DNA of 64,000 bases, taken from contig NZ_VFOO01000001.1 of assembly GCF_006716115.1 (NCBI RefSeq), positions 3,968,001-4,032,000 on the forward strand, given 5' to 3'. This document shows, piece after piece, positions 30,552 through 48,527 of the stretch (its first letter is position 1; every line of letters begins with the position of its first letter). This DNA is from Subtercola boreus (lineage in GTDB: Bacteria > Actinomycetota > Actinomycetes > Actinomycetales > Microbacteriaceae). The notes under the pieces were generated by a model. The model had not been told where the DNA came from. It searched no databases and saw nothing but the letters and a program-made list of their open reading frames with translations. The position numbers and the translations under genes were made by a program.

Positions 30552-30639
30552 CGGTGCGGGGCGGGACCGGCCTCTGCGGGCGAGACCGGCAGCTGTGCCG
30601 GGCGTTCCCGCGCCGTCCTGTCGTTCTTGCGGGGACGCC

Positions 30640-33480: not shown

Positions 33481-33666
33481 GGAACGGTCGCTCGGGCCGC
33501 CGAAGGGACCCGAATCGCGCCAAACGCATTCCAGCGGAACGGTATGGGCCCCCTGGGGCGCCGTCCGGCGGGGTGCGGGGCAGAGCGGGGGCGGGGGCGC
33601 GGGGGCGCGGGCGGGGCGCGCTGATCATTCCGCGTCCACCCCTTCTTCAGGCGGGCGGCCCCGGCC

Positions 33667-33686
33667 GTTCACGTGGCCGCATGAAC
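33667..33686 (+). promoter_or_regulatory. Possible PHO half-sites upstream of pstC
   Basis: GTTCA (33667-33671) and TGAAC (33682-33686) form a spaced inverted pair; GTTCACG is the same word as in the PHO-like boxes at 43081 and 48612-48622. Only one clear direct unit is seen, so this is a weak call. The rest of the 261-bp gap after the kinase gene is GC-rich and holds no gene I can support. Confidence 0.35.
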
Positions 33687-33741: not shown

Positions 33742-34929
33742 GTGGCTGACGACAGAGCCTTCGAGTCGCTCACCGACCTGCACGATGCGCTGAACCGGCC
33801 CACCAGTGTGAAGGTTCCCGTCGAGCGGGTGTTCGCGCCCGAGGTGGGCGGCGAGATCTTCGAGGCGACGAAGAGCAGGGGCCCGCGACATCCGGCCGCC
33901 GCCACCCGGACCGACCGGAGCACCCAGACCGACCAGCCCGAGCCCGCGAACCACCGCGACGTCGAGAAACGGTCGCTGCGCTCCAAGCCGTCCCGCTCAG
34001 ACTCAGTCTTCAAGGGCGTCTCGCTCACGGCCGGCATCACCACCGTCAGCATCATGCTCGCTGTCGGCCTCTTCCTCTCGCTGCGTGCCAGCGACGCGTT
34101 GCAGGTCTCGGGCATCAACTTCCTGCTCGAACAGCAGTGGTCGCCGGAGACGCAGCAGTTCGGCATCGCCTCCGTCATCTTCGGCACGTTCACGATCGCG
34201 ATCATCGCGATGTTCGTGGGGGTGCCGCTGGCTGTCGGGACGGCCCTGCTGCTCTCCGAGGTGGTGCGCGGACCGCTCCGCTCCTTCCTGGTCTCGCTGG
34301 TCGACCTGATGGCGGCGGTACCGAGCGTCGTGTTCGGCCTCTGGGGGCTGTTCTTCCTGCAGGCCGCCGTCATCCCGGTCTCGGCCTGGATCTCGACGTA
34401 CTTCTCCTTCATCCCGATCTTCGCGGTCGAAGACGCATCGGGTGCCCGCCTGACCGAGGCCAGCGCCTTCACGTCGAGCGCGTTCATCGCGGGGATCGTG
34501 GTCGGCCTGATGGTCGTGCCCACCCAGACCTCGGTGATGCGGGAGGCGTTCTCGCAGGCGCCGATGGGGGAGCGCGAGGCGGCGTTCGCCCTCGGCTCCA
34601 CCCGGTGGGGCATGATCCGCACGGTCGTTCTGCCGTTCGGGCGGGGCGGGATGATCGGGGGCATCATGCTCGGCCTCGGGCGCGCGCTCGGCGAGACGAT
34701 CGCGGTGTACCTCATCATTTCGCCGATCTTCACGATCAACTGGGAGGTGCTGAAGACCGGCACGAACTCGGTCAGCGCCCTCATCGCGCTGCGGTACGGC
34801 GAGGCCAGCCAGTTCGGGCTCTCGGCGCTGATGGCTGCCGGACTGGTGCTCTTCCTGATCACTCTGGTCATCAATTTCACGGCGTCGTCGATCGTCGCCC
34901 GGTCGCGCTCCGGCGCCGAGACGAGCTGA
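33742..34929 (+). CDS. pstC: Phosphate ABC transporter permease PstC
   Basis: A 395-residue protein. The start is GTG 33742, with GGAGG ten bases upstream; an earlier GTG (33718) would include the ribosome site. A charged cytosolic head of about 90 residues precedes six membrane segments. Family motifs are DLMAAVPSVVFGLWGLFFL, the EAA loop REAAFALGSTRWGMIRTVVLP and GRALGETIAVYLI. It forms the high-affinity phosphate channel with PstA. Next are pstA and pstS; the ATPase gene pstB is about 11 kb downstream, beyond six surface genes, whereas it normally follows directly. Confidence 0.95.
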   Translation: MADDRAFESLTDLHDALNRPTSVKVPVERVFAPEVGGEIFEATKSRGPRHPAAATRTDRSTQTDQPEPANHRDVEKRSLRSKPSRSDSVFKGVSLTAGITTVSIMLAVGLFLSLRASDALQVSGINFLLEQQWSPETQQFGIASVIFGTFTIAIIAMFVGVPLAVGTALLLSEVVRGPLRSFLVSLVDLMAAVPSVVFGLWGLFFLQAAVIPVSAWISTYFSFIPIFAVEDASGARLTEASAFTSSAFIAGIVVGLMVVPTQTSVMREAFSQAPMGEREAAFALGSTRWGMIRTVVLPFGRGGMIGGIMLGLGRALGETIAVYLIISPIFTINWEVLKTGTNSVSALIALRYGEASQFGLSALMAAGLVLFLITLVINFTASSIVARSRSGAETS

Positions 34930-34937
34930 GCCCGGCC

Positions 34938-36257
34938 ATGTCGATCACGACCCTCGAACGTCCCGCGGCCGAGAACGACGGCGACGGAGACGACGGCACC
35001 GGCTCCGGCGTCGGCACCGATGCCGCCCGCGCGACCGTCGCCGGCGGCGAAGCACCCGCCGCACCCACCCGCATCCCGTCGAAGGAGGGTGTCGAGGTCG
35101 GCCCGCGCCGCCGGCTCCGCGAGTCGACTCTGGATGAACGTTTCAACATCCTCGGCGCACTGGTCGCCGGCCCCACCGTCGCCACCCTGCTCTTCGGCTG
35201 GTTCACACCGCTGACCGGTCCGATCGGCTGGGTCGTGGTCGCGTTCCTCGCCTTCATCGGGTTCTACATCCTGCTCGTCTCGCTCCGATCCGACCGCGAG
35301 GAGGTCAAGGACCGGGTGCTGACGGTACTGCTGATCAGCGCGGGCACGATCCTGTTCGGTGCGCTCGCGTTCGTCGTGGTCTACGCGGTGGGGCGCGGAT
35401 CCGTGGCCCTGCCGCACCTCAACTTCTTCACCCAGACGATGGAGCTCGCGGGTCCCCTCGACGGGCTCGACGTCGGCGGGATCTCGCACGCGATCGTCGG
35501 CACGCTCATCCAGATCTCGATCGCGCTCGCCATCACGATCCCGCTCGGCATCACGACGGCCGTCTTCCTGAACGAGATCGGCGGGAAGTTCGCCCGGTTC
35601 GTGCGAACGATCTCCGACGCGATGACCGCGCTGCCCTCGATCGTCGCCGGGCTGTTCGTGTACGCGGCGATCATCCAGCTCATCACGCACCAGCGCTCGG
35701 GGTTCGCGGCCTCGCTCGCGATCAGCGTGATGATGCTGCCGATCATCATCCGGGCCTCCGATGTGGTGCTGCGGCTGGTGCCCGGCAACCTGCGCGAGGC
35801 GTCGTACGCGCTCGGTTCGACGCGCTGGCGCACGGTGTGGAGCGTCGTGCTGCCGACCGCCCGCTCGGGTCTCGTGACCGCGGTCATCCTCGGCACGGCC
35901 CGCGGCATCGGCGAGACCTCGCCCGTGCTGCTGACGTCGGGCATCACCGCGGTCATGAACCTGAACCCGTTCTCGGGCCCGATGATCTCGCTGCCACTCC
36001 AGGTGTTCGACTTCGTGAAGTCGCCCGAGCCGAACATCATTGCGCGCGGGTTCGGCACGGCCGCGGTGCTGATCCTGCTCGTACTGCTGCTGTTCGTGAT
36101 CGCGCGGCTGATCGGCGGCAAGGGCCCCGGGCAGCTCAGCGACCGCCAGCGCCGCCGCGTCGCCCAGCAGTCGGTGGATGACCTGCAGCGCATCGCCGCC
36201 CGCAATCACCTGCTCACCCCTTCCCCCGCCCCCACGACCCAGGAGTCGTCACCGTGA
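34938..36257 (+). CDS. pstA: Phosphate ABC transporter permease PstA
   Basis: A 439-residue protein from ATG 34938, eight bases after pstC. A cytosolic head of about 60 acidic and Ala-rich residues is followed by two extra hydrophobic segments, then the six-segment permease core. Motifs are ISDAMTALPSIVAGLFVYA, the EAA loop REASYALGSTRWRTVWSVVLP and GIGETSPVLLTSG. It is longer than typical PstA (about 290) because of the head and extra segments. Its end overlaps pstS by four bases. Confidence 0.95.
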   Translation: MSITTLERPAAENDGDGDDGTGSGVGTDAARATVAGGEAPAAPTRIPSKEGVEVGPRRRLRESTLDERFNILGALVAGPTVATLLFGWFTPLTGPIGWVVVAFLAFIGFYILLVSLRSDREEVKDRVLTVLLISAGTILFGALAFVVVYAVGRGSVALPHLNFFTQTMELAGPLDGLDVGGISHAIVGTLIQISIALAITIPLGITTAVFLNEIGGKFARFVRTISDAMTALPSIVAGLFVYAAIIQLITHQRSGFAASLAISVMMLPIIIRASDVVLRLVPGNLREASYALGSTRWRTVWSVVLPTARSGLVTAVILGTARGIGETSPVLLTSGITAVMNLNPFSGPMISLPLQVFDFVKSPEPNIIARGFGTAAVLILLVLLLFVIARLIGGKGPGQLSDRQRRRVAQQSVDDLQRIAARNHLLTPSPAPTTQESSP

Positions 36258-37894
36258 CCCCGCGCATCCGTTTCCTCCGCACCCTCGGTGCCGCCCTCGC
36301 CTTCGTCGTTCTCGTGATCGGGATCGGCGGCGGTGTCACCGTGCCGAGCGCCTCGGCCGAGATCTACCTGCCCATCACCGGCAGCGGGTCGACCTGGTCG
36401 CAGAACGCCCTCGACCAGTGGCGGAAGAACGTCGCCGCGAACTACGGCATGACGGTCAACTACTCCGGCAACGGCTCGTCGGCCGGGCGGCAGGACTTCA
36501 TCAGCCAGTCGGTCGACTTCGCGGTGAGCGAGATCCCGTTCCAGGCGAAGCCGGAGGACCAGTCCGCGCCCGAGGTGCCGACGAGCGGCTACGCCTACAT
36601 GCCCATCGTGGCTGGAGGCACGTCGTTCATGTACAACCTGAAGATCGGCGGCAAGCGGGTCACGAACCTGCGCCTCGACGGCGACGTCATCTCCAAGATC
36701 TTCACCGGCGTCATCGTCAACTGGAACGACCCCGCCATCGCCGCAGACAACCCCGGTCTCGCGATGCCCGACAAGCCGATCGTGCCCGTGCTCCGCTCCG
36801 ACGGATCGGGCTCGACCGCGCAGTTCACGCTCTGGATGTCGAAGCAGCACCCCGATCTCTGGAACGCCTTCTGCACCTCCGTCGGCCGGGATGCCCCCTG
36901 CGGTCTCACTTCTCAGTACCCCGGCTTCGGCAACGCGAAGCTGCAGAGCGGATCGCTCGGCGTGGCCGGCTACGTCAGCCAGGACTACGGAGAGGGCGCT
37001 ATCACCTACGTCGAGTACTCGTATGCGCTGAAGTCGGGCTTTCCTGTCGCGAAGGTGCTGAACAACGCCGGGTACTTCATCGAGCCGACGGCGCCATCGG
37101 TGGCCGTGGCCCTCGTTGGTGCCCAGATCAACAGCGACCTGACGCAGGTGCTCGACGGGGTCTACAACAACGCCGACCCGCGCACCTATCCGCTGTCGAG
37201 CTATTCGTACATGATCCTGCCCACCGAGACCAACAAGATCTTCACCGCCGAGAAGGGCAAGACGCTCGGGGCCTTCACGAGCTATCTGCTCTGCGAGGGG
37301 CAGCAGCAGGCGCAGCAGCTCGGCTATTCGCCCCTGCCCCTGAACCTCGTGCAGGCGGCCTCCGACCAGGTGAAACGCATTCCGGGCGGGCCCGCGGGCG
37401 GTGTAGACCTCGCCAGTTGCAACAACCCGGCGCTGCAGATCCTCGACACGGCACCGCAGCCCGCTGACTGCGACAAGCAGGGCGCCAACCAGTGCACGAC
37501 GGGCACAGCGGGTGCGGTCGTCGACACTCCGGTGACCGGATCGGGTTCGGGCGGCAGCGCGGCCGCGGCCCCGGGCGCCGGTGGTGGCGCGGCCGCGGTC
37601 GCTCCCACGGCGGAGGCCGCGGCGGCTGCTGCCGCTGCCGTGTCTGCTGCGGATCCGGCGGCCGCGGCCGCTGCTGGGGCAGCGGCATCCAACACCGCCG
37701 TCTACGACGCGAACGGCGCGATCGTCAGCGGGAACGCCGGGGCAGGCGCCTCCGTCGCGGTCTCGAAGCCGTTGACCCTCGCCGACCAGCCCTTCGGTCC
37801 GCAGCAGATCGTGATGATTGCCGCCGGAGTGCTGCTGCTGCTCGCGATCGCCCTACCGCCGTTCGTGTCGCGCCGTCTGAAGCGCAGCCGCTAG
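36254..37894 (+). CDS. pstS: Phosphate-binding protein PstS with C-terminal membrane anchor
   Basis: A 546-residue protein starting at GTG 36254 inside the pstA stop (GTGA). The signal peptide covers about 1-35. The PstS fold shows ITGSGSTWSQNALDQW, YSGNGSSAGRQDFI and VPVLRSDGSGSTAQFTLW, the phosphate-contacting loops. After about residue 425 comes an Ala/Gly-rich stalk, and the protein ends in one membrane segment and RRLKRSR. Most PstS proteins are lipoproteins; here no lipobox Cys is seen and the anchor is at the C-terminus. A terminator hairpin follows 45 bases downstream. Confidence 0.93.
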   Translation: MTPRIRFLRTLGAALAFVVLVIGIGGGVTVPSASAEIYLPITGSGSTWSQNALDQWRKNVAANYGMTVNYSGNGSSAGRQDFISQSVDFAVSEIPFQAKPEDQSAPEVPTSGYAYMPIVAGGTSFMYNLKIGGKRVTNLRLDGDVISKIFTGVIVNWNDPAIAADNPGLAMPDKPIVPVLRSDGSGSTAQFTLWMSKQHPDLWNAFCTSVGRDAPCGLTSQYPGFGNAKLQSGSLGVAGYVSQDYGEGAITYVEYSYALKSGFPVAKVLNNAGYFIEPTAPSVAVALVGAQINSDLTQVLDGVYNNADPRTYPLSSYSYMILPTETNKIFTAEKGKTLGAFTSYLLCEGQQQAQQLGYSPLPLNLVQAASDQVKRIPGGPAGGVDLASCNNPALQILDTAPQPADCDKQGANQCTTGTAGAVVDTPVTGSGSGGSAAAAPGAGGGAAAVAPTAEAAAAAAAAVSAADPAAAAAAGAAASNTAVYDANGAIVSGNAGAGASVAVSKPLTLADQPFGPQQIVMIAAGVLLLLAIALPPFVSRRLKRSR

Positions 37895-37938
37895 ACGACC
37901 GCCCCACACCCCTGTTGGCCCCTGAAGAGGGGGCCTGG

Positions 37939-37971
37939 AACCCCCGGAATCATGCGGATCCCGGGGGTTTT
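37939..37971 (+). terminator. Terminator after pstS
   Basis: AACCCCCGG (37939-37947) pairs with CCGGGGGTT (37961-37969) around a 13-base loop and is followed by TT. It ends the pstCAS transcript and separates it from the surface genes, which have their own PHO-like promoter. Confidence 0.85.
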
Positions 37972-38032
37972 CGGCTGCGCGCGGCAACGCCGCCCGGGCC
38001 AGCCCCAATGCGAAATGTCGGTGGGAGCACTC

Positions 38033-38054
38033 GTTCCCCGCGCGTTCATCTGGG
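38033..38054 (+). promoter_or_regulatory. PHO-box-like direct repeat upstream of the large surface gene
   Basis: Two 11-nt units, GTTCCCCGCGC (38033-38043) and GTTCATCTGGG (38044-38054), follow the 11-nt direct-repeat plan of actinobacterial PhoP sites (GTTCAC-type). An AT-rich stretch with CATATT (38069-38074) lies about 15 bases downstream as -10, so the repeat stands where the -35 box should be. This suggests activation by PhoP under phosphate limitation. Confidence 0.6.
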
Positions 38055-38123
38055 GGCCACCATCCGCCCATATTTTTTCCACGTTCCCCTTTCAAACCGC
38101 TGGCTTCCAGCATGGAGTTCCCT

Positions 38124-40736
38124 GTGCCCTCTTCCCCTCGTCACCGCAGCAGCTACAGTTCGCCCCGGCGCACCTGGCTGCTCTCCGGAGTCACCGGCGT
38201 CGTCGTCGGACTCTCGGTCGGTGCGATCGTCGCCCTGTCTGGCGTGGTGCTGCCGAGCGGGACTGCGCACGCCGACGATTCGTCGGCCGTGACCGTGAAG
38301 GCCTCCGACCAGGATGTGGACATCGCTGACGCTCCGGCACCCGACCTCGCCGTGACGGTCTCGCAGACCCGCGGCCTGGTCTCTCAGGGACTCACGATCT
38401 CGTGGACGGGCGGGAAGAAGTCCGAACTCCCCTCCACGATCACGGGCGGGGCGGACTTTCTGCAGATCGCCCAGTGCTGGGGCGACGACCCCGCGTCGAG
38501 CACGCCGTCGCCCGACCGCACGACCTGCCAGTACGGCGGATTCTCGAGCCCCGGCGCCTCGCGCGACAGCTACCTGAGCAGCATCGACGACGTCGCGCCT
38601 GAGGACATGGACTACACCGTGCCGTCGACCAACTTCGCGGTGCCGACGTACACGTCGATCCCGTTCCGCGCGGTGACCGGCGAGACCGTCGCGTCGGTGA
38701 AGGACGGGCAGCACAACGAGAGCGTCGACGTCAATCAGAACCCGTTCTTCACGAAGTACACGACGAATGAGGTCAAGTGGATCGGGTCGAGCGACGAAGG
38801 CACGGGCAGCGCCAAGTTCGAGGTGCAGACCGCGCTTCAGGCGCCCGGCCTCGGCTGTGGTGCCCCGATCACGGCGGCCGACGGCACGAAATCGGGTCGT
38901 GGCTGCTGGCTGGTGATCATCCCGCGCGGTGAGAAAGACCCGGGAAGCGCCGGCATCGACCAGTCGGGGTTGTTCTACGACACCTGGAAGCACCGGATCG
39001 CGGTCAAGCTGACCTTCAACCCCCTCGGCGTGAACTGCCCGATCGGTGCCGCTGAGCGCCCGATCGCCGGCAGCGAGCTTGCGGCGGCGGCTGTCGCCTC
39101 CTGGCAGCCGGCCCTCTGCAACGCCGACGGAGGCGCGGTCTACTCGATCAGCACGGGGGCAGACACCGACGCCGCGCTCGCCGCCAACGGAACGGCCGTG
39201 GCTCCGCTCGCCCTCACCTCCTTGCCCCTGCCGGCCGAGGCCAGTGGCGGGGTCGACAACCTCACCTACGCACCCGTCGCGTTGGGAGGACTGTCGATCG
39301 GCTTCGCCGTCGACCGGGTGCCCTCCACCGTCGAAGGCACCCCGCAGAAGGTCATCGATTCGGCGGGCCTGCCGTTCTCCTCCCTGAAACTCACCCCGCG
39401 GCTCGTGGCGAAGCTCCTGACCAACTCGTACATCGATTCGCTGCCGACCGGCGCCGACCGTTCGCACGTCGGCTACAAGAGCCCTGCGGATCCCGGCAAG
39501 AACGCGCGCAATGTGACGCTGGATCCCGACTTCCTGGCGATCAACGATCCCGAGTGGAAGTACATGAACGTGATCAGCCCGTCGGTGGCCGACCTGCTGG
39601 AGCCGCAGGGGCGGTCGGATGCCGCGACCCAGCTCTGGAACTACGTGCTCTCCGATCCCTCCGCCGTCGCCTTCCTGAACGGCGAGCCCGACGAGTGGGG
39701 GATGATCGTCAACCCGTGGAGCAGCACGAGCGACGAGGTCGTCCAGACCGTCAACAAGGACGGGAAGGGCCTGGTCCTGCCGCGCGACAGCTTCCCGAAG
39801 ACCGATCCGATCGACCAGGCGGCGACCGACAACGGCGGGGAGGTCAACCTCGTCACCTGGCGGCCCTACGTCAACGACCTCGACAGTTCGGCCTACCTGA
39901 CCCTCCGCGGTGACGGCCAGACTCTCGGCTTCTGGAACCCCACAGCGGCCACGCCCAAGTACGACAAAGCGGTGCGGAGTCTCCCCGGCCAGCAGAGCGT
40001 GCTCGGGCTGACCGACACCTCCTCGGCCGCCCGATACCAGGTGGTCTCGGCGGAGCTCCAGAACCCGGCCGGATCGTTCGTGGCGCCGACGGTCGATTCT
40101 CTGACGGCGGCCGCCGCTGCCATGACGGCGAACGCGTCGCAGTCGCAGGTCTACACCTTCGACCCGAAGAGCGAGGCGGCGAAGGCGGCCCCGACCGCCT
40201 ACCCGCTGGCCATGCCCGTGTATGCGGCGGTGAACCGCACCATGGACGACGCCGACCTCCGCAAGGACTTCGCCGCGTTCATCCGCTACGCCGCAACCGA
40301 CGGCCAGAGCCCCGGCGACACCCTCGGCGAACTGCCGAGGGGGTATGCGCCGATCCCGTCGGGCTGGGAGGCCCAGGCCCTGGCCGCCGCCGACATCATC
40401 GAGTCGGGAAGGCTGCCGGACACCTCCACTCCCGCCGCGACCCCTGCCCCCGCGGCGGGCACGACGGCCCTCACCCCGGCGCAGGTGCAGGCCGGTGTGA
40501 CCGTGTCCCGCCCGGTCGGCGCTGTCTCCGGCGCCGTTCCCGCTGCGGCGATCATCTCGGCGCCCGAGACGACCGTCGACCCGACGGGTGCGGTGGCCGC
40601 ACCCCTGCTGGGACCGGCGACGCCCGCCGACCCCGCGGGCGGCCCCATCTCCGCCGCCGTGCCCGCGAGCGTGCTCGCCGGACTCGGCGCCGCTGGTGCG
40701 GTGCCGTTCCTCTCCCGCATCAGGAGGCGCACCTGA
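38124..40736 (+). CDS. Large membrane-anchored binding-protein-like surface protein of the pst locus
   Basis: An 870-residue protein. GTG 38124 has GGAG six bases upstream and is preferred over ATG 38112, which contains that site. There is a signal peptide or anchor (about 15-47), then a large extracytoplasmic region. Parts of it (LTPRLVAKLLTNSYIDSL, LDPDFLAINDPEW, FAAFIRYAATDGQ) look like a PstS-type substrate-binding fold with large insertions. Six or more Cys suggest disulfides. The end is an Ala/Pro/Thr stalk, one weak membrane segment and RIRRRT, like the anchor of PstS. It probably binds phosphate or a phosphorylated compound at the surface; that is inferred from position. Confidence 0.7.
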   Translation: MPSSPRHRSSYSSPRRTWLLSGVTGVVVGLSVGAIVALSGVVLPSGTAHADDSSAVTVKASDQDVDIADAPAPDLAVTVSQTRGLVSQGLTISWTGGKKSELPSTITGGADFLQIAQCWGDDPASSTPSPDRTTCQYGGFSSPGASRDSYLSSIDDVAPEDMDYTVPSTNFAVPTYTSIPFRAVTGETVASVKDGQHNESVDVNQNPFFTKYTTNEVKWIGSSDEGTGSAKFEVQTALQAPGLGCGAPITAADGTKSGRGCWLVIIPRGEKDPGSAGIDQSGLFYDTWKHRIAVKLTFNPLGVNCPIGAAERPIAGSELAAAAVASWQPALCNADGGAVYSISTGADTDAALAANGTAVAPLALTSLPLPAEASGGVDNLTYAPVALGGLSIGFAVDRVPSTVEGTPQKVIDSAGLPFSSLKLTPRLVAKLLTNSYIDSLPTGADRSHVGYKSPADPGKNARNVTLDPDFLAINDPEWKYMNVISPSVADLLEPQGRSDAATQLWNYVLSDPSAVAFLNGEPDEWGMIVNPWSSTSDEVVQTVNKDGKGLVLPRDSFPKTDPIDQAATDNGGEVNLVTWRPYVNDLDSSAYLTLRGDGQTLGFWNPTAATPKYDKAVRSLPGQQSVLGLTDTSSAARYQVVSAELQNPAGSFVAPTVDSLTAAAAAMTANASQSQVYTFDPKSEAAKAAPTAYPLAMPVYAAVNRTMDDADLRKDFAAFIRYAATDGQSPGDTLGELPRGYAPIPSGWEAQALAAADIIESGRLPDTSTPAATPAPAAGTTALTPAQVQAGVTVSRPVGAVSGAVPAAAIISAPETTVDPTGAVAAPLLGPATPADPAGGPISAAVPASVLAGLGAAGAVPFLSRIRRRT

Positions 40737-40851
40737 TGCCCACATTCTTGGAACCCGTGACGACCGGCGACGACTGCCGGCCGCACACCAAGTCGAGACG
40801 CCGTGACTGCGGATGCTCGGTAATCACTCCCGAAAAAAGGAATCGCACCCC

Positions 40852-41934
40852 GTGAGAATCACCAAAGTTGTTGCCGTCTGCGCAGCAGTTGGCGTCGCCG
40901 TTGCCGGCATCGCATTCGCAGCCCCCGCGTACGCGGACCCCGTGTCGAACAGCTACACGCTGGTCGGCTCCGACACCCTCCAGGACGCGGCCAACGCTCT
41001 CGCGAACGGAACCACCGTCACCGGTTCCGCCGTTCGCGTGACCGCCTCCGGCAACACCATCGGCTCGTTCGACGCCTTCGGCTCGAACTCGATCCAGACC
41101 AAGAACTCGGGAACCTACTTCGCCCGCCCCGCGGGCTCGGGTGACGGCGTCAAGGCCCTCAGCCGTTCGATCGACGGTGCACCGTTCTCGGTCTCGGGCA
41201 ACCCGACTCCCGCCAAGGCCATCACGGCCCAGGTCGACATCGCCCGTTCGTCGAGCGGCCCCGGCGCTGCGGCCAACACCAGCGGTGTGCTGCAGTACTT
41301 CCAGTTCGGTCGCGACGCCGTGTCGTACGCCTACAGTGGAACCGGCATCGACCAGCTCACCAAGGCCCAGCTGACCGCGATCTACAACTGCTCGCTCACC
41401 AGCGTGAACGGTGTCGACGTCACCCCCGTGCTCCCGCAGTCCGCTTCGGGAACCCGCAAGTTCTTCCTGTCGGCCATCGGTATCACCACGCCCGGTGCGT
41501 GCGTCGTTCAGCGCGGCGATGCTGAGAACGATGGAACTGTTCTCGTCAACACCGGCGAGCTCATCCCCTTCTCGGTCGCCAGCTGGGTCGCCCAGAGCAA
41601 TGGTGCCGCGCAGGACCGCACCGGCACCGCCCGTCTCGGCAGCGCTGAAGGCACCACCGTGCCGTTCACCGGAGCCGACGGCAGCTACGTTCCGAACCCG
41701 ACCTACTACGCAGACACCACCTTCGGTCGCGACACCTACGTCGTCGTCGAGGCTGCCCGCGTGAACCCGTCGAGCCCGAAGTACGACCCGGCTCTCGCGG
41801 CTCTCGTCGACCCCACCAAGTCGAAGAGCCTCACGAACTTCGGTTCGGGCCCCTCCACGTCGGGTGCTGTGAAGACCAAGTTCGGTTTCCTCGCTCCGTC
41901 GACCACCGTTTCGATCCGCGCGAACGCCTCCTAG
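40852..41934 (+). CDS. Second secreted PstS-like substrate-binding protein
   Basis: A 360-residue protein from GTG 40852 (AAAAAAGG 11 bases upstream). The signal peptide ends at about 26 (AYA-DP). The mature protein opens SNSYTLVGSDTLQDAANAL, as PstS-fold proteins do, and continues with ARSSSGPGAA, FGRDAVSYAYSGTGI and TKAQLTAIYNC. No membrane anchor or lipobox is seen, so it is free or held by a partner. A Cys pair (around residues 184 and 219) may form a disulfide. Codon use is strongly biased (GGT, TCG, ACC), suggesting high expression. It sits between the large anchored protein and a WxL-like protein. The ligand is likely phosphate or a phosphate ester. Confidence 0.72.
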   Translation: MRITKVVAVCAAVGVAVAGIAFAAPAYADPVSNSYTLVGSDTLQDAANALANGTTVTGSAVRVTASGNTIGSFDAFGSNSIQTKNSGTYFARPAGSGDGVKALSRSIDGAPFSVSGNPTPAKAITAQVDIARSSSGPGAAANTSGVLQYFQFGRDAVSYAYSGTGIDQLTKAQLTAIYNCSLTSVNGVDVTPVLPQSASGTRKFFLSAIGITTPGACVVQRGDAENDGTVLVNTGELIPFSVASWVAQSNGAAQDRTGTARLGSAEGTTVPFTGADGSYVPNPTYYADTTFGRDTYVVVEAARVNPSSPKYDPALAALVDPTKSKSLTNFGSGPSTSGAVKTKFGFLAPSTTVSIRANAS

Positions 41935-41974
41935 TCGCGCACCCCACACAGAGAATCTGAAAGGCACACCAGAA

Positions 41975-43027
41975 ATGTTGCGTAAGAACGCACTCCGCAT
42001 CGCCGCCATCGGCGTTGCCGCCGCGTCGCTCGTCGGCACCTCGGCCTTCTCGGCCGCCGCTGCCACCTCGAACGGCTCAGACGCCATCTACTACCTGTAC
42101 GACTCGGGTACTGAGGCGCTCATCGCTCCCGGCCACGTCAACCTGTGGGACGACGACCTCGTCGGCTCCCCCAGCGCCACCGACGCCCGTTCGCTGTTCA
42201 GCTGCCCCGACGACGCGGAGTCGGTGCAGACCTTCATCTCGCCGGTCGGCCAGGAGAAGGTGCGCTCCGCGTGGGTCACCTACGCAGATGGTGGCTTCAA
42301 GCCCGGGACCAAGCAGATCCTCGAGCCCGGCGCCAACCTCGGTGCCCAGGTGCTGGGTTCGCCCGGCGCCGGTTCGGTCAAGGCTGCCGGCGGCAACTAC
42401 AGCGTCGGTTTCGCCTGCGAGAAGTTCAACAACGTTGCCTTCGCGTCGGCCGGTATCTGGTTCGCTCCGATCTCGGTGACCGCCGGTTCGGGTGACTGGA
42501 CCTACCAGCTCTCCGACACCGTCGCACCGCCTGCTCCGGCGAGCGGTTCGTTCGACCAGACCATCCAGGCGACCACCATCGCCGGTGTCGACGGAACCCT
42601 GAACCTCGTCGCACCCGCGTCGGCCACCACCACCCTCGGTGCGGCCACGCTCGTCGGCGGCCAGTCGACCTCGACCGGCGACCTCGGCAAGTTCACCGTG
42701 CAGGATGGCCGCGTCGTCACGCACAAGGGCTGGACCGTCACCACGCAGGTCACCGATTTCGCCAACGCGTCCGACGCCACGGTGACGATCCCGGCTTCGC
42801 AGCTCACGGTCACGCCGAAGGTCGCCACCGGCGCCACGCTGCCCACCGGTGTGACCCTGTCCGCTCCGTTCGCGGGTGGATCCACCCTGACGGCGTTCGC
42901 AGCGGCCGGCAACACCGCGGCGATCGCGTCGACCGACTTGGATGCAGGCCTGAAGTTCGTCGCTCCCGGCGACAAGCCGGCCGGCACCTACACGGCGAAG
43001 ATGACCATCACCCTCGCCTCGAAGTAG
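41975..43027 (+). CDS. Secreted WxL-like surface protein
   Basis: A 350-residue protein with a signal peptide (1-30, AAA-ATSN). The N-terminal half (35-185) is a unique domain with two Cys. The C-terminal half resembles the WxL domain of Gram-positive surface proteins: HKGWTVTTQVTDFANAS (WTV in place of WxL), ATLPTGVTLSAPF, and a closing GTYTAKMTITLASK. WxL domains bind peptidoglycan or DUF916-type partner proteins non-covalently. A DUF916-like gene follows, which supports the assignment. Codon bias is like the preceding PstS-like gene. It may tether the secreted binding protein to the wall. Confidence 0.68.
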   Translation: MLRKNALRIAAIGVAAASLVGTSAFSAAAATSNGSDAIYYLYDSGTEALIAPGHVNLWDDDLVGSPSATDARSLFSCPDDAESVQTFISPVGQEKVRSAWVTYADGGFKPGTKQILEPGANLGAQVLGSPGAGSVKAAGGNYSVGFACEKFNNVAFASAGIWFAPISVTAGSGDWTYQLSDTVAPPAPASGSFDQTIQATTIAGVDGTLNLVAPASATTTLGAATLVGGQSTSTGDLGKFTVQDGRVVTHKGWTVTTQVTDFANASDATVTIPASQLTVTPKVATGATLPTGVTLSAPFAGGSTLTAFAAAGNTAAIASTDLDAGLKFVAPGDKPAGTYTAKMTITLASK

Positions 43028-43052
43028 CACTCCGCACCACAGAACGACGTGC

Positions 43053-43080
43053 AGGAGGGGCCGTGCAGACGGCCCCTCCT
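43053..43080 (+). terminator. Hairpin between the WxL-like and DUF916 genes
   Basis: AGGAGGGGCCG (43053-43063) and CGGCCCCTCCT (43070-43080) form a perfect 11-bp stem with loop TGCAGA. Only a short T stretch follows. It should terminate much of the upstream transcript, so the highly expressed secreted genes and the membrane genes behind are set at different levels. It could also stabilise the upstream mRNA. Confidence 0.75.
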
Positions 43081-43102
43081 GTTCACGTCCGGTTCACGCC
43101 TT
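43081..43102 (+). promoter_or_regulatory. PHO-box-like direct repeat upstream of the DUF916 gene
   Basis: GTTCACGTCCG (43081-43091) is followed directly by GTTCACGCCTT (43092-43102). This is a good match to an 11-nt-period GTTCAC repeat, the clearest of the window. It begins at the base after the terminator stem and lies 38 bp before the GTG start at 43141, so it would drive the second half of the surface cluster and pstB. Confidence 0.65.
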
Positions 43103-43140
43103 GACCTGCTGCCCGCAAACCTTCTTTGGATGAATGTACT

Positions 43141-44214
43141 GTGCCCGAAAAGACCGCTCTCCCCCTGACGATGAAGCGCCTCGTCTCCCTTGTTCTCGCC
43201 GCGCTCTTCCTCGCGCTGGCGATGGTCAGTGCCACGACCGCCCAGGCCGCACGGGCCGATGACGAGTCCGGCATCTCCGGTGCACCCTCCGACGGATCGA
43301 GCACCGACGACCGCTCGCGGTTCAGCTACAAGCTCTCTCCCGGCCAGCAGATCAGCGACGACTATCTGGTCAAGAACACCGGGACCATCCCGCAGACCAT
43401 GAAGGTCTTCGCCACCGACGCCTACAACACCGATGACGGCTCCTACGGCCTGCTCGACACCGACGCTGCCCCCACCGACGCGGGCAGCTGGGTGTCGTTC
43501 GCCGACGGTGCCAAGCAGCTCGAGATTCCGCTCGCCCCGGGAGCGAGCCAGGTCGTGCCCTTCACGATGACCGTTCCGGCGGATGCCTCGCCCGGCGACC
43601 ACGCGGCCGGGATCGTCATCTCGGTGCTCTCCACCGACGGCCAGGTGCTGGTCGACCGCCGAGTCGCAACCCGCCTCTACGCCCGCGTCGCCGGAGCACT
43701 GCAGGCCGCACTCACCGTCAGCAGCATCTCGGCCTCCTACGACGCCCAGCTGAACCCCTTCGACGGAACGACCACCGTCACCTACACGGTGCGCAACAAC
43801 GGCAACATCGCGCTCGGTGCGAATGCGGTCATCGGAGTGAACACCTACCTCGGCATCGCAGCGGGCACGCTTCAGCGCGCGGAGCTCGCGGAGATGCTGC
43901 CGGGCAGCACGCGCACCCTCTCGGTGCAGGTTCCGGGAGTCGGCCAGCTCGGCTACCTGAACCCCTACATCAGTCTCGCTCCGACCATCGACGCCGACGC
44001 GCAGGATCCGGGGCCGCTCGCCACCGTCGACCGCGACACCGTGACCGTGGCGATGCCGTGGTGGTTGGTCATCCTGCTCGTGATCGCCGCCCTGGTCTTC
44101 TTCTTCCTGCGCTGGCGGCGTGCCCGCGACGCGAAGAACGCTGTCGCGTGGGCCGAGTACAGCGAGGCTGAGGCCCGCCGCAAGGCCGCTGAGCAACCGG
44201 TGGCTGCAGGGTGA
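43141..44214 (+). CDS. DUF916-type (WxL-protein partner) membrane protein
   Basis: A 357-residue protein from GTG 43141 (a TTG at 43126 and an ATG at 43171 are alternatives). A signal peptide ends near AQA-AR. The outer region has two Ig-like halves: SRFSYKLSPGQQISDDYLVKN with TMTVPADASPGDHAAGIVIS, and RVATRLYARVAGAL with VTYTVRNNGNIALGA. This is the order in DUF916 proteins, which in Firmicutes accompany WxL proteins and bind peptidoglycan and WxL partners. One membrane segment (about 307-327) and a cytosolic Arg/Ala-rich tail close the protein. It overlaps the next gene by four bases. Confidence 0.78.
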   Translation: MPEKTALPLTMKRLVSLVLAALFLALAMVSATTAQAARADDESGISGAPSDGSSTDDRSRFSYKLSPGQQISDDYLVKNTGTIPQTMKVFATDAYNTDDGSYGLLDTDAAPTDAGSWVSFADGAKQLEIPLAPGASQVVPFTMTVPADASPGDHAAGIVISVLSTDGQVLVDRRVATRLYARVAGALQAALTVSSISASYDAQLNPFDGTTTVTYTVRNNGNIALGANAVIGVNTYLGIAAGTLQRAELAEMLPGSTRTLSVQVPGVGQLGYLNPYISLAPTIDADAQDPGPLATVDRDTVTVAMPWWLVILLVIAALVFFFLRWRRARDAKNAVAWAEYSEAEARRKAAEQPVAAG

Positions 44215-45050
44215 GCGGTTCCGGATCCCGTCTCGCAGCCACGCTCAGCGCGCTGGTGCTCGTCGCGTTCGCCGGCGCAGCCCTGCTGGGCTCGAATGCT
44301 GCGTTCGCCGACACCGCGTTCACCGACGACACCGGCGGGGTCGGCATCACCGTGACGGTCTCGCCCGCGCCCACCGCTCCGGGCGCGGTCGGCTCGCCCG
44401 CGGTACCCGGCTCCGCATCATCCGGAACCGGCACAGGAACGGTCTCGAACCCGTCCCTCCCGGGCGTCGGCGTCACGGGCGTCACGGGCAACACGGTCGT
44501 CACCGGCGGAGCGAAGGCGTCGGCTCCCGTGCCTGCCGCCGACGAGTTCGACCTCGGCGGCATCGTCTTCGTCAGCGGGGTGACGTCGGGCTACGGCTGG
44601 AGCATCAACCCGCTCGGCGGTGACTCGCACGCGGAGTTCACCGTTCACAATGTGTCGCAGTTCACCTTCGACGGCACGGCCGGCTTCCAGCTGGTGGGCC
44701 CGTTCGGGAACGAGATCGCGCGTGTCGACGGCATCCGCATCGACCAGCTGAAGCCCGACGAGTCGCGGGTCATCGAGGCGACGCTGACGGGCCTCGGGCA
44801 GTGGACGTTCTTCACCACGCACGCGACGTTCACCCCGCCGGAGAATGTCGGCGGAACCGCGCTGTCGTCGATCACGCGCGACGGGTTCCTGTTCGTGCTG
44901 CCGTGGTTCCTGCTCGTGCTGCTGATCGTGGCGGCCGGGGCGGTCAGGGTGGTCACGATCATCCGCACCCCGCCGGCAGGCGCAGCCGCAGCCGCGGCCG
45001 CAGCGCCCTCCGCGGCACTCGCGACAGAGGGCAGCGGGGGAGTGGTGTGA
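44211..45050 (+). CDS. Single-pass surface protein of the pst-linked cluster
   Basis: A 279-residue protein starting at GTG 44211 inside the DUF916 stop. It has a signal peptide (ends near AFA-DT), a Gly/Pro/Thr/Ser linker (45-105), then a compact beta-type domain of about 110 residues (EFDLGGIVFVSGVTSGYGW, EFTVHNVSQFTFDGTAGFQ). A membrane segment (about 228-250) and an Ala-rich tail follow. The outer domain looks Ig-like. No family is recognised. It is overlapped by the pseudo-sortase gene, so DUF916, this protein and the sortase-like protein are made together and may form one membrane complex. Confidence 0.65.
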   Translation: MSGSGSRLAATLSALVLVAFAGAALLGSNAAFADTAFTDDTGGVGITVTVSPAPTAPGAVGSPAVPGSASSGTGTGTVSNPSLPGVGVTGVTGNTVVTGGAKASAPVPAADEFDLGGIVFVSGVTSGYGWSINPLGGDSHAEFTVHNVSQFTFDGTAGFQLVGPFGNEIARVDGIRIDQLKPDESRVIEATLTGLGQWTFFTTHATFTPPENVGGTALSSITRDGFLFVLPWFLLVLLIVAAGAVRVVTIIRTPPAGAAAAAAAAPSAALATEGSGGVV

Positions 45051-46048
45051 CCGCGGTCATCGAGGAGCCGGCCGCGCCCGTCGACGCTCCCACCCGGGGA
45101 AAGGTGCCCCGGGTTCCGCGAACGGCGAAGGCCCCGAAGCCGCCGAAGCCGCCGCGCGTCCCCCGGCGCCCGCCGCCCTCGACCCTCGGCCCGCCCCCGC
45201 CGCCCAGCCCGGTGCAGATCGTGCTGCGCGGCGTGCTGCTGCTCATCGCCGCCATGCTCTTCGCGTTCGCCGCGAATCTCATGGTGCTCAGCCACGTGCA
45301 GCACTTCGTGGCCCAGCAGCAGCTGATGAACGAGTACCGCGTGCAGCTCACGGCGGGCACCGCCCCGGTGAGCGAGGCCACCTTCGACGAGTCGCTCGTC
45401 GCGGACGGGGCACCGGTGGGCGTCATCGACATCCCCTCGATCGGCGTGCGCGAGGTCATCTCCGAGGGCAGTTCGGCCGACATCCTGAAGAACGGGCCGG
45501 GCCACCGCCGTGACTCTGTGCTGCCCGGGCAGGCCGGCATCAGCACCGTGATGGCGCGGTCAGCGGCCTACGGCGGACCGTTCTCGCGCATCCAGGAACT
45601 CGCACCCGGCGACAAGCTCTCCGTGACCACCGGGCAGGGCGAACAGCAGTTCGAGGTCGTCGGCGTGCGCTACGCGGGCGACCCCGTGCCGACCTTCAAG
45701 GGCGGAACGAGCCGGCTGACCCTCATCACGGCGCGGGGCCCCGCGTTCATCCCGACCGGCATCGCCTATGTGGATGCCCAGCTCACCAGCGACGTGCAGC
45801 CCGCTGGCAAGCGGCAGACCACCTACCTCGCGCTGCCGACGGTCGACCAGGCGATGGCCACCGACACCAGCACCGCGTGGGCGCTCGTCTTCGCCCTGCA
45901 GTTTTTGCTCGTCGTCGAACTCGCCGCCGTGTGGGCTTTCCGCCGCATCGGAGCGCAGAAGACGTGGGTCGTGTTCGCGCCGCTCTCGATCCTCTCCGCC
46001 CTCTTCGTGGCCAACCAGCTCGCCCTGCTGCTGCCCAACCTGCTCTGA
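45047..46048 (+). CDS. Sortase-fold membrane protein lacking catalytic residues (pseudo-sortase)
   Basis: A 333-residue protein from GTG 45047. A Pro/Lys/Arg-rich cytosolic head (1-55), one membrane segment (about 58-80) and a sortase-like domain (about 115-255) are followed by two more membrane segments. GVIDIPSIGVREVISEG and NGPGHRRDSVLPGQAG are typical class C/E sortase strands. The usual AGHR-type His motif reads VMARSAAYGGPF, and the TLxTC motif reads TLITARGP. There is no Cys anywhere in the protein. It therefore cannot be a transpeptidase and is more likely a structural or peptide-binding member of the complex. Pairing with DUF916 and WxL-like genes fits. Confidence 0.82.
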   Translation: MTAVIEEPAAPVDAPTRGKVPRVPRTAKAPKPPKPPRVPRRPPPSTLGPPPPPSPVQIVLRGVLLLIAAMLFAFAANLMVLSHVQHFVAQQQLMNEYRVQLTAGTAPVSEATFDESLVADGAPVGVIDIPSIGVREVISEGSSADILKNGPGHRRDSVLPGQAGISTVMARSAAYGGPFSRIQELAPGDKLSVTTGQGEQQFEVVGVRYAGDPVPTFKGGTSRLTLITARGPAFIPTGIAYVDAQLTSDVQPAGKRQTTYLALPTVDQAMATDTSTAWALVFALQFLLVVELAAVWAFRRIGAQKTWVVFAPLSILSALFVANQLALLLPNLL

Positions 46049-46099
46049 CCGGGACCGGCCCGCCGGTCATCCACCCGCCCCTCACAGAAACGACTCGCC

Positions 46100-46969
46100 A
46101 TGCCCGACGCCCAGCCCTCCGACGAGACCACGCAGGTCCTCCCCGTCTCCCGGCGCGCCCGGCGCGAGCAGACAGGCCTGCTCGAACGGGCGCCCCTGGC
46201 AGGCCTCGAGGCGCGCAACATCTCCGCCTGGTTCGGCGACCACCAGGTTCTGGACCGAGTCTCGCTCGACATGCCCGCCGGCGTCATCACGTCGCTGATC
46301 GGGCCGTCGGGCTGCGGCAAGTCGACGTTCCTGCGCATTCTGAACCGGATGCACGAACTCGTGCCGAGCGCGAGCCTCGCCGGTGAGGTGCTGATCGAGG
46401 GCACCGACATCTACGACCCGGCGCGGAAGCTGGTGGATGCCCGGAAGAGCATCGGCATGGTCTTCCAGAAGCCGAACCCGTTCCCGGCGATGTCGATCTA
46501 CGACAATGTGGTCGCGGGGCTGAAGCTCACCGGCACGAAGGTGGGGCGTGACGAGCGCGACCAGCTCGTCGAGAGCTGCCTCATCAAGGCGGGGCTCTGG
46601 AACGAGGTGCGGGATCGCCTCCGTTCCCCGGGCGGCGGCCTCTCGGGCGGCCAGCAGCAGCGGCTCTGCATCGCACGCTCCCTCGCCGTGACGCCGCAGG
46701 TGCTGCTGATGGACGAACCGTGCTCCGCCCTCGACCCCACCTCCACCCGGGTGATCGAGGAGACCATGCTCGAACTCGTCAACGACGTCACCATCGTGAT
46801 CGTGACGCACAACATGCAGCAGGCGCAGCGGGTCTCGACGCAGTGCGCGTTCTTCCTCGCCTCGCAGGGCCAGCCCGGCGGCATCGTGGAGCACGGCGAC
46901 ACCGAGGCGATGTTCGGCGACCCGATCGACTCCCGCACCTACGACTACGTCAACGGCGTCTTCGGCTGA
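46100..46969 (+). CDS. pstB: Phosphate ABC transporter ATPase PstB
   Basis: A 289-residue ATPase with an N-terminal extension of about 35 residues. Walker A is GPSGCGKST, the signature GLSGGQQQRLCIARSL, and Walker B LLMDEPCSALDP; the early AWFGDHQVLD and FQKPNPFPAMSIYDNV are typical of PstB. It powers PstC/PstA. It follows the pseudo-sortase gene by 51 bp and is in line with the surface cluster rather than beside pstCAS. No phoU gene follows. A long palindrome ends the unit. Confidence 0.95.
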   Translation: MPDAQPSDETTQVLPVSRRARREQTGLLERAPLAGLEARNISAWFGDHQVLDRVSLDMPAGVITSLIGPSGCGKSTFLRILNRMHELVPSASLAGEVLIEGTDIYDPARKLVDARKSIGMVFQKPNPFPAMSIYDNVVAGLKLTGTKVGRDERDQLVESCLIKAGLWNEVRDRLRSPGGGLSGGQQQRLCIARSLAVTPQVLLMDEPCSALDPTSTRVIEETMLELVNDVTIVIVTHNMQQAQRVSTQCAFFLASQGQPGGIVEHGDTEAMFGDPIDSRTYDYVNGVFG

Positions 46970-47354: not shown

Positions 47355-48527
47355 CTACGCCTTCCGATCCGCGAGCGGTCGGCCGCCCGCATCCTGAGCA
47401 CCCGACGAGTCGCTCTCGTCGACCTCGTTCACGTTCTCGTGCGTCACCGGGTGGCGGCGCGCGAGAACGAAGATCCCGCCTCCGATGACGAGGGCCAGCA
47501 CCGCCACGATCACGAGACCGACGGTGCTGGTGGATGCCGCCCAGGCCGCGAGACCGCCGACGATCGCCGCGGCCGGCAAGGTGAAGACCCAGCCGAGCGC
47601 GATCTTGCCGACGACGTTCCAGTGCACGCGGGCGAGCCGCTTGCCGAGACCCGATCCGACCACCGCACCGGAGGTGACCTGCGTGGTCGAGAGGGCGAAG
47701 CCGAGGTGCGACGAGATCAGGATGGTCGCCGCCGAACTCGTCTCGGCCGCGAAGCCCTGGGCGGGCTGCACGTCGGTGATGCGCTTTCCGACGGTGCGCA
47801 TGATGCGCCAGCCGCCGAGGTAGGTGCCGAGGGCGATCGCGAGCCCGCAGGCGCCGATCACCCAGAGCTGCGGGCCGGTGTTCGAATCCTGGTAGCCGGC
47901 TGCGATGAGGGTCAGGGTGATGACACCCATCGTCTTCTGCGCGTCGTTCGTGCCGTGCGCGAGCGAGACGAGTGAGGCCGAGACGGTCTGGCCGTGCCGG
48001 AAGCCGCGATCCGATCCGCGCACCCGCGCCTGCCGGGTGATGCGGTAGGCGGCGAACGTCGCGACGAGCGCGACGAGGCCGGCGACGAAGGGGGAGAACA
48101 GGGCCGGCAGCACGACCTTCGAGAGCACCACCCCGAAGTCGACGGAGTTGACGCCCGCCCCGATGATCGCGGCCCCGATCAGGCCGCCGAAGAGCGCGTG
48201 GGTGGAGCTCGACGGCAGCCCGAGGTACCAGGTGCCGAGGTTCCAGAGCACGGCGCCGACGAGGCCGGCGAAGATCATGGTCGGCGTCACCTGGATGCCG
48301 CCCTGACCTTCCTTGATGATGCCCTGCGAGATGGTCTTCGCGACCTCGGTCGAGAGGAACGCGCCGACCAGGTTGAGCACGGCCGAGATGAGAACGGCCA
48401 CCTTCGGTTTCAGGGCTCCCGTCGCGACCGAGGTGGCCATGGCGTTCGCGGTGTCGTGGAACCCGTTCGTGAAGTCGAAGACGAGTGCGATGACGATGAC
48501 GAGGGCGACTGTGACCAGTACGTCCAT
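47355..48527 (-). CDS. pit: Low-affinity inorganic phosphate transporter (PiT family)
   Basis: A 390-residue protein with about ten membrane segments. The two inverted PiT signatures are visible: DFTNGFHDTANAMATSVATGAL near the start and SLAHGTNDAQKTMGVI in the second half; GLPSSSTHALFGG is also typical. It imports phosphate, usually as a metal-phosphate complex, using the proton gradient. ATG 48527 has AGGAGG upstream. A PHO-like direct repeat is centred about 85 bp upstream. It faces the pst locus, so low- and high-affinity uptake are encoded side by side. Confidence 0.95.
   Translation of the reverse strand: MDVLVTVALVIVIALVFDFTNGFHDTANAMATSVATGALKPKVAVLISAVLNLVGAFLSTEVAKTISQGIIKEGQGGIQVTPTMIFAGLVGAVLWNLGTWYLGLPSSSTHALFGGLIGAAIIGAGVNSVDFGVVLSKVVLPALFSPFVAGLVALVATFAAYRITRQARVRGSDRGFRHGQTVSASLVSLAHGTNDAQKTMGVITLTLIAAGYQDSNTGPQLWVIGACGLAIALGTYLGGWRIMRTVGKRITDVQPAQGFAAETSSAATILISSHLGFALSTTQVTSGAVVGSGLGKRLARVHWNVVGKIALGWVFTLPAAAIVGGLAAWAASTSTVGLVIVAVLALVIGGGIFVLARRHPVTHENVNEVDESDSSGAQDAGGRPLADRKA

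What the first reader, a model, noticed from the sequence alone, without database searches (positions are those of the whole stretch)
33742..46969. Pst phosphate transporter operon split by a six-gene cell-surface module
pstC, pstA and pstS are followed by an 870-aa anchored binding-protein-like protein, a second secreted PstS-like protein, a WxL-like protein, a DUF916-type protein, an anchored Ig-like protein and a pseudo-sortase, and only then by pstB. All read in one direction, and the last four genes are closely packed or overlap. Known pst operons keep pstB beside pstA. The arrangement suggests a wall-spanning phosphate capture complex that hands ligand to Pst. Gene order and motifs are seen; WxL-DUF916 partnership is established in Firmicutes; the function is inferred.
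Basis: partly seen in the sequence, partly recalled or inferred. Interest (0 to 1): 0.88.

Follow-up and report, generated by a model that had tools for sequence, protein, structure and literature searches.

The report
Second phosphate importer with surface proteins
Many bacteria related to Microbacterium carry a second, separately evolved phosphate-import system whose genes usually sit together with cell-surface proteins, including a sortase that has lost its catalytic residues; DNA signals beside the genes suggest it is switched on when phosphate runs short.

Summary
The gene order is real and conserved: pstC, pstA, pstS, an 870-aa protein, a secreted PstS-like protein, WxL-like, WxLIP/DUF916, Ig-like, pseudo-sortase, pstB. 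All ten genes occur in 59 of 80 named loci (53 strictly collinear by script); 14 of the other 21 run off a contig end. It is not "the" pst operon split open. The genome has an ordinary pstSCAB locus elsewhere, and module PstBs form their own group (100/100). All 11 genomes with the module in a 60-genome sample hold both PstB types. The 870-aa protein has a PstS fold with an altered ligand site. The sortase lacks catalytic His and Cys in every copy checked, yet strong matches occur only with the module. Phosphate control is suggested by GTTCACC-type sites before pstC, the 870-aa gene and DUF916; the last two show the 11-nt repeat of PHO boxes. A PASTA Ser/Thr kinase often adjoins. The genome's other DUF916 gene partners a WxL-tailed purple acid phosphatase with a tandem PHO-like site. 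Best reading: a phosphate-starvation second Pst importer with a wall-side capture assembly built round a dead sortase. Ligand, complex and hand-off are inferred. A new variant of a known kind; nine literature searches found no description.

The parts
31501..33480 (+).
   Evidence: Pkinase E 1.5e-29, PASTA E 5.8e-13; a profile of it matches same-strand within 2.3 kb upstream in 55 of 77 loci with >=3 kb upstream, just after pstB in 3, none in 19 (two loci counted twice)
33634..33673 (+). PHO-like half sites GTCCACC (33634) and GTTCACG (33667) before pstC
   Evidence: the second aligns with GTTCACC/GTTCACT of two sister genomes
33742..34929 (+). pstC (longest ORF from 33718)
   Evidence: TIGR02138 E 1e-70
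34938..36257 (+). pstA
   Evidence: TIGR00974 E 1e-64
36254..37894 (+). pstS, secreted, C-terminal hydrophobic anchor, no lipobox seen; Glu at the E. coli Asp56 position
   Evidence: TIGR00975 E 7e-68
38033..38050 (+). tandem PHO-like repeat GTTCCCC/GTTCATC, 11 nt apart, before P870
38112..40736 (+). P870: N-terminal beta region, PstS fold with insertions and altered ligand site, C-terminal hydrophobic helix
   Evidence: AlphaFold mean pLDDT 85; Foldseek 4lvq TMt 0.81
40813..41934 (+). secreted PstS-like protein with GSDT, Arg145 and SGT motifs
   Evidence: TIGR02136 E 3e-4; motifs in 76 of 76 rows
41975..43027 (+). WxL-like wall protein (first Trp motif kept; second motif lacks Trp)
   Evidence: fold search inconclusive
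43081..43098 (+). tandem PHO-like repeat GTTCACG/GTTCACG, 11 nt apart, before DUF916
43126..44214 (+). WxLIP_PGBD/DUF916 protein with C-terminal hydrophobic helix
   Evidence: PF06030 E 5.7e-7
44211..45050 (+).
   Evidence: no Pfam family; conserved position
45047..46048 (+). pseudo-sortase (class E-like domain, His to Arg, Cys to Ala, hydrophobic C-terminal part)
46100..46969 (+). pstB of the divergent module group
   Evidence: TIGR00972 328.6 bits, below cut-off 343.2; tree 100/100

Best explanation
This is a second, anciently diverged Pst-type ABC importer, switched on by phosphate starvation, with its own cell-surface assembly. Shown: the genes, their conserved order, a separate PstB group, phosphate-type residues kept in PstS except Asp56 to Glu, a PstS-fold P870 with an altered site, a sortase with both catalytic residues gone, co-occurrence of P870, pseudo-sortase and module PstB in all 11 of 11 carrying genomes of the sample, and PHO-like sites at three promoter positions. 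Inferred: the WxL-like and DUF916 proteins hold the assembly to peptidoglycan; the secreted PstS-like protein loads phosphate (or a phosphate-like anion) in the wall; P870 and the pseudo-sortase act as non-catalytic, membrane-anchored scaffolds that dock binding proteins; the anchored PstS passes ligand to PstCAB; the neighbouring PASTA kinase couples the system to wall state.
For: Order in 53 of 80 loci strictly, 59 of 80 by content; intergenic medians from -4 to 152 nt. The module also occurs in other orders and classes. Canonical-scoring PstB present as well in 11 of 11 module genomes; the own canonical locus read in full. PstB: 36 module and 31 canonical rows, one split, 100/100. Strong pseudo-sortase matches (E<=1e-50) only in the 11 P870 genomes of 60. 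His to Arg in 46 of 46 aligned copies, Cys to Ala 44 or Ser 2. GTTCACC before pstC in 49 of 72 regions, shuffles mean 3.0, max 5. Forward sites in PstS-P870 gaps 43 of 49 (reverse 2), WxL-DUF916 gaps 34 of 68 (reverse 7), against pSrt-PstB gaps 7 of 60 (reverse 5) and P870-PstS-like gaps 10 of 64 (reverse 1). Period-11 repeats 11 of 49 and 16 of 68 forward against 0.5 shuffled; 0 of 60 and 0 of 64 in the two control gaps. The own canonical pstS has tandem GTTCACC. PHO box as two 11-nt repeats: PMC4415409 (passages); GTTCACnnnnnGTTCaC at phosphate genes of Microlunatus: PMC6754071 (abstract and passages). WxL-tailed purple acid phosphatase with DUF916 partner and PHO-like tandem in 4 genomes, own included.
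Against: No expression, binding or uptake data. Before pstC there is no period-11 excess (1 of 71), and the window's own site there is GTTCACG. Random 510-nt windows of the same loci hold GTTCACC in 323 of 1600; the loci are related, so counts are not independent. The Microlunatus regulator that binds GTTCACnnnnnGTTCaC is described as DevR-like and perhaps oxygen-linked, so the motif alone does not prove phosphate control. PstS Glu is not universal: Asp in two distant members and Ser in one. P870 lacks the usual phosphate ligands. WxL, DUF916 or Ig genes are missing from some modules. 12 of 22 DUF916 matches lie outside the module; of the 9 such loci read in relatives, 3 have the phosphatase and 6 do not. 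The tree program warns of long branches.
Confidence: 0.6

Rival explanations
1. The module imports a different ligand (organophosphate, phosphite, another oxyanion or a wall-derived phosphate compound) and not inorganic phosphate.
For: Asp56 to Glu in 77 of 77 readable PstS rows of 81; altered P870 site; a canonical-scoring PstB is present in all 11 module genomes of the sample, so plain phosphate uptake is probably already served.
Against: The other PstS ligand residues (Thr, Ser, Arg, Ser-Gly) are kept; two distant members keep Asp. PHO-like sites would fit such a ligand equally well, so they do not decide.
Confidence: 0.2
2. The module is mainly a surface phosphate sensor or envelope-remodelling system: the PASTA kinase reads the wall and the Pst-like parts signal, with transport secondary.
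For: Kinase-profile match beside the module in 58 of 77 loci, upstream or downstream; pseudo-enzymes often act as sensors (general knowledge).
Against: 19 of 77 loci have no such kinase nearby, including 8 of the 10 distant loci L169-L178. PstCAB is complete and PstB keeps a full ABC_tran domain match.
Confidence: 0.12
3. An ordinary pst operon was interrupted by an unrelated surface cluster, which persists as a neutral passenger.
For: PstA and PstB are usually adjacent in known pst operons (recalled), as in the own canonical locus.
Against: Arrangement conserved across families, and its core across classes; separate PstB group; complete canonical pst elsewhere; no match to P870 in the plasmid collection.
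Confidence: 0.03

Closest known systems
Canonical Pst phosphate ABC importer (PstSCAB)
   Same: PstC, PstA, PstS and PstB homologues; PstS keeps most phosphate ligands
   Different: PstB in a separate group; PstS with a C-terminal hydrophobic anchor and no lipobox; six more surface genes inside the operon; none of the ten genes matched PhoU
WxL / DUF916 (WxLIP) cell-surface clusters of Firmicutes (recalled)
   Same: A WxL-like protein followed by an anchored WxLIP_PGBD protein
   Different: WxL is sub-threshold in the window copy and lacks the second Trp motif; embedded in a Pst operon; Actinomycetota
Class E/D sortases
   Same: Sortase domain by sequence
   Different: Catalytic His and Cys lost in all copies checked; no C-terminal LPXTG-type signal found in the module proteins, only an LPITG near the N-terminus of PstS
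Actinobacterial PHO regulon with GTTCACC-type boxes
   Same: 11-nt direct repeats at two internal promoter positions; tandem at the own canonical pstS
   Different: Regulator not identified here; the pstC site is a single strong half site

Membership tests
Pst phosphate ABC importer | PstS, PstC, PstA, PstB together | tested here: met
   PstB below the equivalog cut-off, TIGR00972 its best family
Pst phosphate ABC importer | PstB falls among canonical PstBs | tested here: not met
   separate side of one branch, 100/100
Pst phosphate ABC importer | PstS phosphate ligands including Asp56 | tested here: inconclusive
   others kept, Asp to Glu in 77 of 77 readable rows of 81; Asp in two and Ser in one of the distant members
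Pst phosphate ABC importer | transports phosphate | not testable with these tools
   needs uptake assays
Active sortase | catalytic His and Cys | tested here: not met
   0 of 46 aligned copies (window and 45 of the 72 copies found) have either residue; 0 of 11 further rows; the genome's two other sortases keep both
WxL domain protein | Pfam WxL above gathering score and two Trp motifs | tested here: not met
   14.5 bits vs 25; 3 of 34 copies at E<=0.01; first Trp invariant, second motif without Trp
WxLIP / DUF916 | PF06030 above gathering score | tested here: met
   30.0 vs 27.3 bits
PHO regulon member | tandem 11-nt repeats before the transcription unit | tested here: met
   two internal positions; before pstC only single-site enrichment
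PHO regulon member | induced by phosphate limitation | not testable with these tools
   no expression data seen in search listings

The most novel reading that the evidence does not exclude
A wall-spanning phosphate relay unknown so far: secreted and anchored PstS-like proteins held in the peptidoglycan by WxL/DUF916 parts and organised by a sortase that has become a non-catalytic docking protein, feeding a dedicated, anciently diverged Pst importer, with a WxL-displayed purple acid phosphatase supplying phosphate and a PASTA kinase reporting wall state.
Probability: 0.3. Interest if true: 0.88.

Novelty: new variant of a known kind. Interest (0 to 1): 0.72.

Why it matters
Gram-positive cells must bring phosphate through a thick wall, and how binding proteins are arranged there is little known. 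A conserved operon that ties a Pst importer to wall-binding proteins and to a sortase stripped of catalysis gives a testable case of a wall-side nutrient capture machine, and of a sortase fold reused as a scaffold. It also shows that genomes counted as having 'pst twice' may hold two different systems.

Tried and rejected
Rejected: a disrupted canonical pst; passenger genes; a plasmid-borne element (no match for P870 at E<=1e-5). Glu for Asp56 as a defining mark was dropped after two distant members showed Asp and one Ser. Fold search of the WxL-like model gave no match at E<=0.001. PDB profile search of the WxL-like alignment gave nothing, and of the secreted PstS-like protein nothing. Profile-profile comparison of P870 with PstS covered only 114 columns at 67% probability, so the PstS fold rests on the AlphaFold model and Foldseek; the P870 ligand mapping is a motif alignment by eye. 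Clustering of flanking ORFs showed the kinase in 38 loci; the next clusters (14 loci and fewer) were not identified further, apart from a glance at three. Stricter TTCA repeat patterns found no 11-nt repeats before pstC.

Method caveats: three reference rows (PstC of L013 and L020, PstA of L013) were cut at a stop caused by a wrong start or end choice before the profiles were built. Homologous ORFs were read stop to stop, which gives false order flags in six loci. The tool kept the best 80 of 425 matching loci, which are biased to Microbacteriaceae. Only three of the kinase matches were checked in Pfam. Gap statistics used only gaps of 40-700 nt: 49 of 80, 68 of 71, 60 of 71 and 64 of 77 pairs.
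Full report
What is there. The window is G000:C1:3968001-4032000 of a 4.21-Mb genome; its nearest named relative for this module is Subtercola boreus. Ten same-strand genes run from 33742 to 46969: pstC, pstA, pstS, P870, a secreted PstS-like gene, WxL-like, WxLIP/DUF916, Ig-like, pseudo-sortase, pstB.

It is a second system. Searching 60 genomes (own included), P870 was found in 11. Each of those 11 also has a PstB of 343.7-365.3 bits, above the family cut-off, and a divergent one of 324.8-341.5 bits, below it. In 10 of them the divergent PstB lies within about 8 kb of P870; in G002 it lies on another contig together with the pseudo-sortase. In G057 the two scores are close (343.7 and 341.5). 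Only the own canonical locus was read in full: ppk, nudix hydrolase, pstS lipoprotein, pstC, pstA, pstB (the names ppk and nudix are by eye). In a tree of 67 PstBs, 36 module and 31 canonical rows form one split with 100/100 support; the program warns of long branches, L171 above all.

Conservation. A scan of the GTDB genome collection with a P870 alignment gave 425 matching loci, of which the tool kept the best 80. All ten genes were found collinear in 53 of 80; six more hold all ten but were flagged because ORFs were read stop to stop; 14 of the remaining 21 run off the contig, and 7 lack one or more genes within it (L105, L107, L153 DUF916; L131 PstS-like; L135 WxL, DUF916 and Ig; L168 Ig; L143 WxL and DUF916). 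Spacing is tight (medians -4 to 152 nt). In the order the alignment matched 31 of 396 genomes, in the phylum 7 of 396 (E<=1e-25, own included). Ten distant loci were read wider: all ten hold PstC, PstA, PstS and P870; nine hold the pseudo-sortase and eight PstB, the gaps lying at contig ends (L169, L178). WxL, DUF916 and Ig come and go, and order varies (L171 has PstB first, L173 has P870 before PstC). So the core is Pst plus P870 plus pseudo-sortase, and the wall-binding part looks like an accessory layer.

The pseudo-sortase. It matches class E sortases and solved sortases. In 46 aligned copies (the window and 45 of the 72 found) the catalytic His is Arg in 46, and the Cys is Ala in 44 and Ser in 2. 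In 11 further rows the same places hold Arg or Lys, and Ala or Thr. The genome's two other sortases keep both residues. At E<=1e-50 the protein occurs in the same 11 of 60 genomes as P870 and in no other; five weaker matches (E 1.6e-11 to 3.9e-9) in other genomes were not inspected.

Binding proteins. PstS keeps the phosphate-type residues but has Glu at the position that aligns with E. coli Asp56, in 77 of 77 readable rows of 81. Distant members show Asp twice and Ser once, so Glu is not universal. P870 was modelled at mean pLDDT 85 and pTM 0.80; the best PDB fold matches are PstS proteins, with TM-score 0.81 by the length of Mtb PstS3. Its site differs: Glu322 in 77 of 78 where Thr is expected, Ser or Thr at the Asp place, Arg501 kept in 77 of 78 (placed by motif alignment, not by structure superposition). 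The secreted PstS-like protein has GSDT, Arg145 and SGT in 76 of 76 rows but no PDB match.

Phosphate control. GTTCACC lies before pstC in 49 of 72 regions against 3.0 in shuffles; the wider motif is mostly on the sense strand (69 against 11). But 323 of 1600 random windows also hold GTTCACC, and 450-nt stretches before other module genes hold it in 6 of 71 to 29 of 71. In a narrower window, forward sites occur before pstC in 57 of 71 (reverse 6), P870 65 of 80 (5), DUF916 37 of 71 (8), pstB 7 of 71 (5), the PstS-like gene 14 of 77 (6) and WxL 6 of 75 (21). Counting only DNA between genes, sites lie in 43 of 49 PstS-P870 gaps (reverse 2) and 34 of 68 WxL-DUF916 gaps (reverse 7), against 7 of 60 pSrt-PstB gaps (5), 10 of 64 P870-PstS-like gaps (1) and 1 of 17 PstS-like-WxL gaps (0). 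Repeats at exactly 11 nt appear forward in 11 of 49 (reverse 0) and 16 of 68 (reverse 3) against 0.5 in shuffles; in the two control gaps forward 0 of 60 and 0 of 64 (reverse 1 and 0); before pstC 1 of 71 (reverse 2), so no excess. The own canonical pstS has tandem GTTCACC. A review gives the PHO box as two 11-nt repeats (PMC4415409, passages). A Microlunatus regulator binds GTTCACnnnnnGTTCaC at phosphate genes, but it is called DevR-like and perhaps oxygen-linked (PMC6754071, abstract and passages).

A link from elsewhere in the genome. The only other PF06030 match of the genome is partner to a protein with purple acid phosphatase N-terminal and calcineurin-like phosphoesterase domains (E 1.6e-14 and 2.2e-9) and a WxL-like C-terminal part (by eye and by match to relatives). 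A tandem GTTCAAC/GTTCACC lies within the first codons of its longest ORF, ahead of the likely signal peptide, so the true start is probably further in. The same pair with such a tandem near it occurs in 3 of the 9 outside loci read, of 11 in relatives; the other 6 lack the phosphatase and the tandem. A lamin-tail protein with a phytase-like domain lies nearby (LTD E 1.3e-37, Phytase-like E 2.8e-10).

The kinase. The window kinase has Pkinase and PASTA domains. A profile of it matches upstream on the same strand in 55 of 77 loci with enough sequence, just after pstB in 3, and not in 19, among them 8 of the 10 distant loci L169-L178; two loci are counted twice (53 of 75 without them).

Literature. 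Nine searches showed no description of this module in their listings; the library holds open-access papers only. Three papers were opened (passages only; one search gave no passage).

Verdict. The arrangement is real, widespread in its group and kept as a unit.

Noticed in passing
L184:5380-8661 (G000:C1 about 3824379-3827660), - strand: Purple acid phosphatase-type phosphoesterase with WxL-like C-terminal part and a DUF916 partner, with a tandem PHO-like repeat at its 5' end; also in three relatives.
   Followed up: partly
L184:87-3200, + strand: 1037-aa protein with three lamin-tail domains and a phytase-like domain, with a GTTCACTT site just before it: maybe part of the same phosphate island.
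   Followed up: partly
window 47355-48527, - strand: PiT-type low-affinity phosphate transporter (PHO4 E 1.7e-92) convergent with the module's pstB.
   Followed up: no
window 30595-31497, + strand: Transglycosylase SLT-domain protein just before the PASTA kinase.
   Followed up: no
L096, L097, L121, L125, L133, L142, L155: A further PstS homologue on the same strand after pstB in several Microbacterium loci.
   Followed up: no
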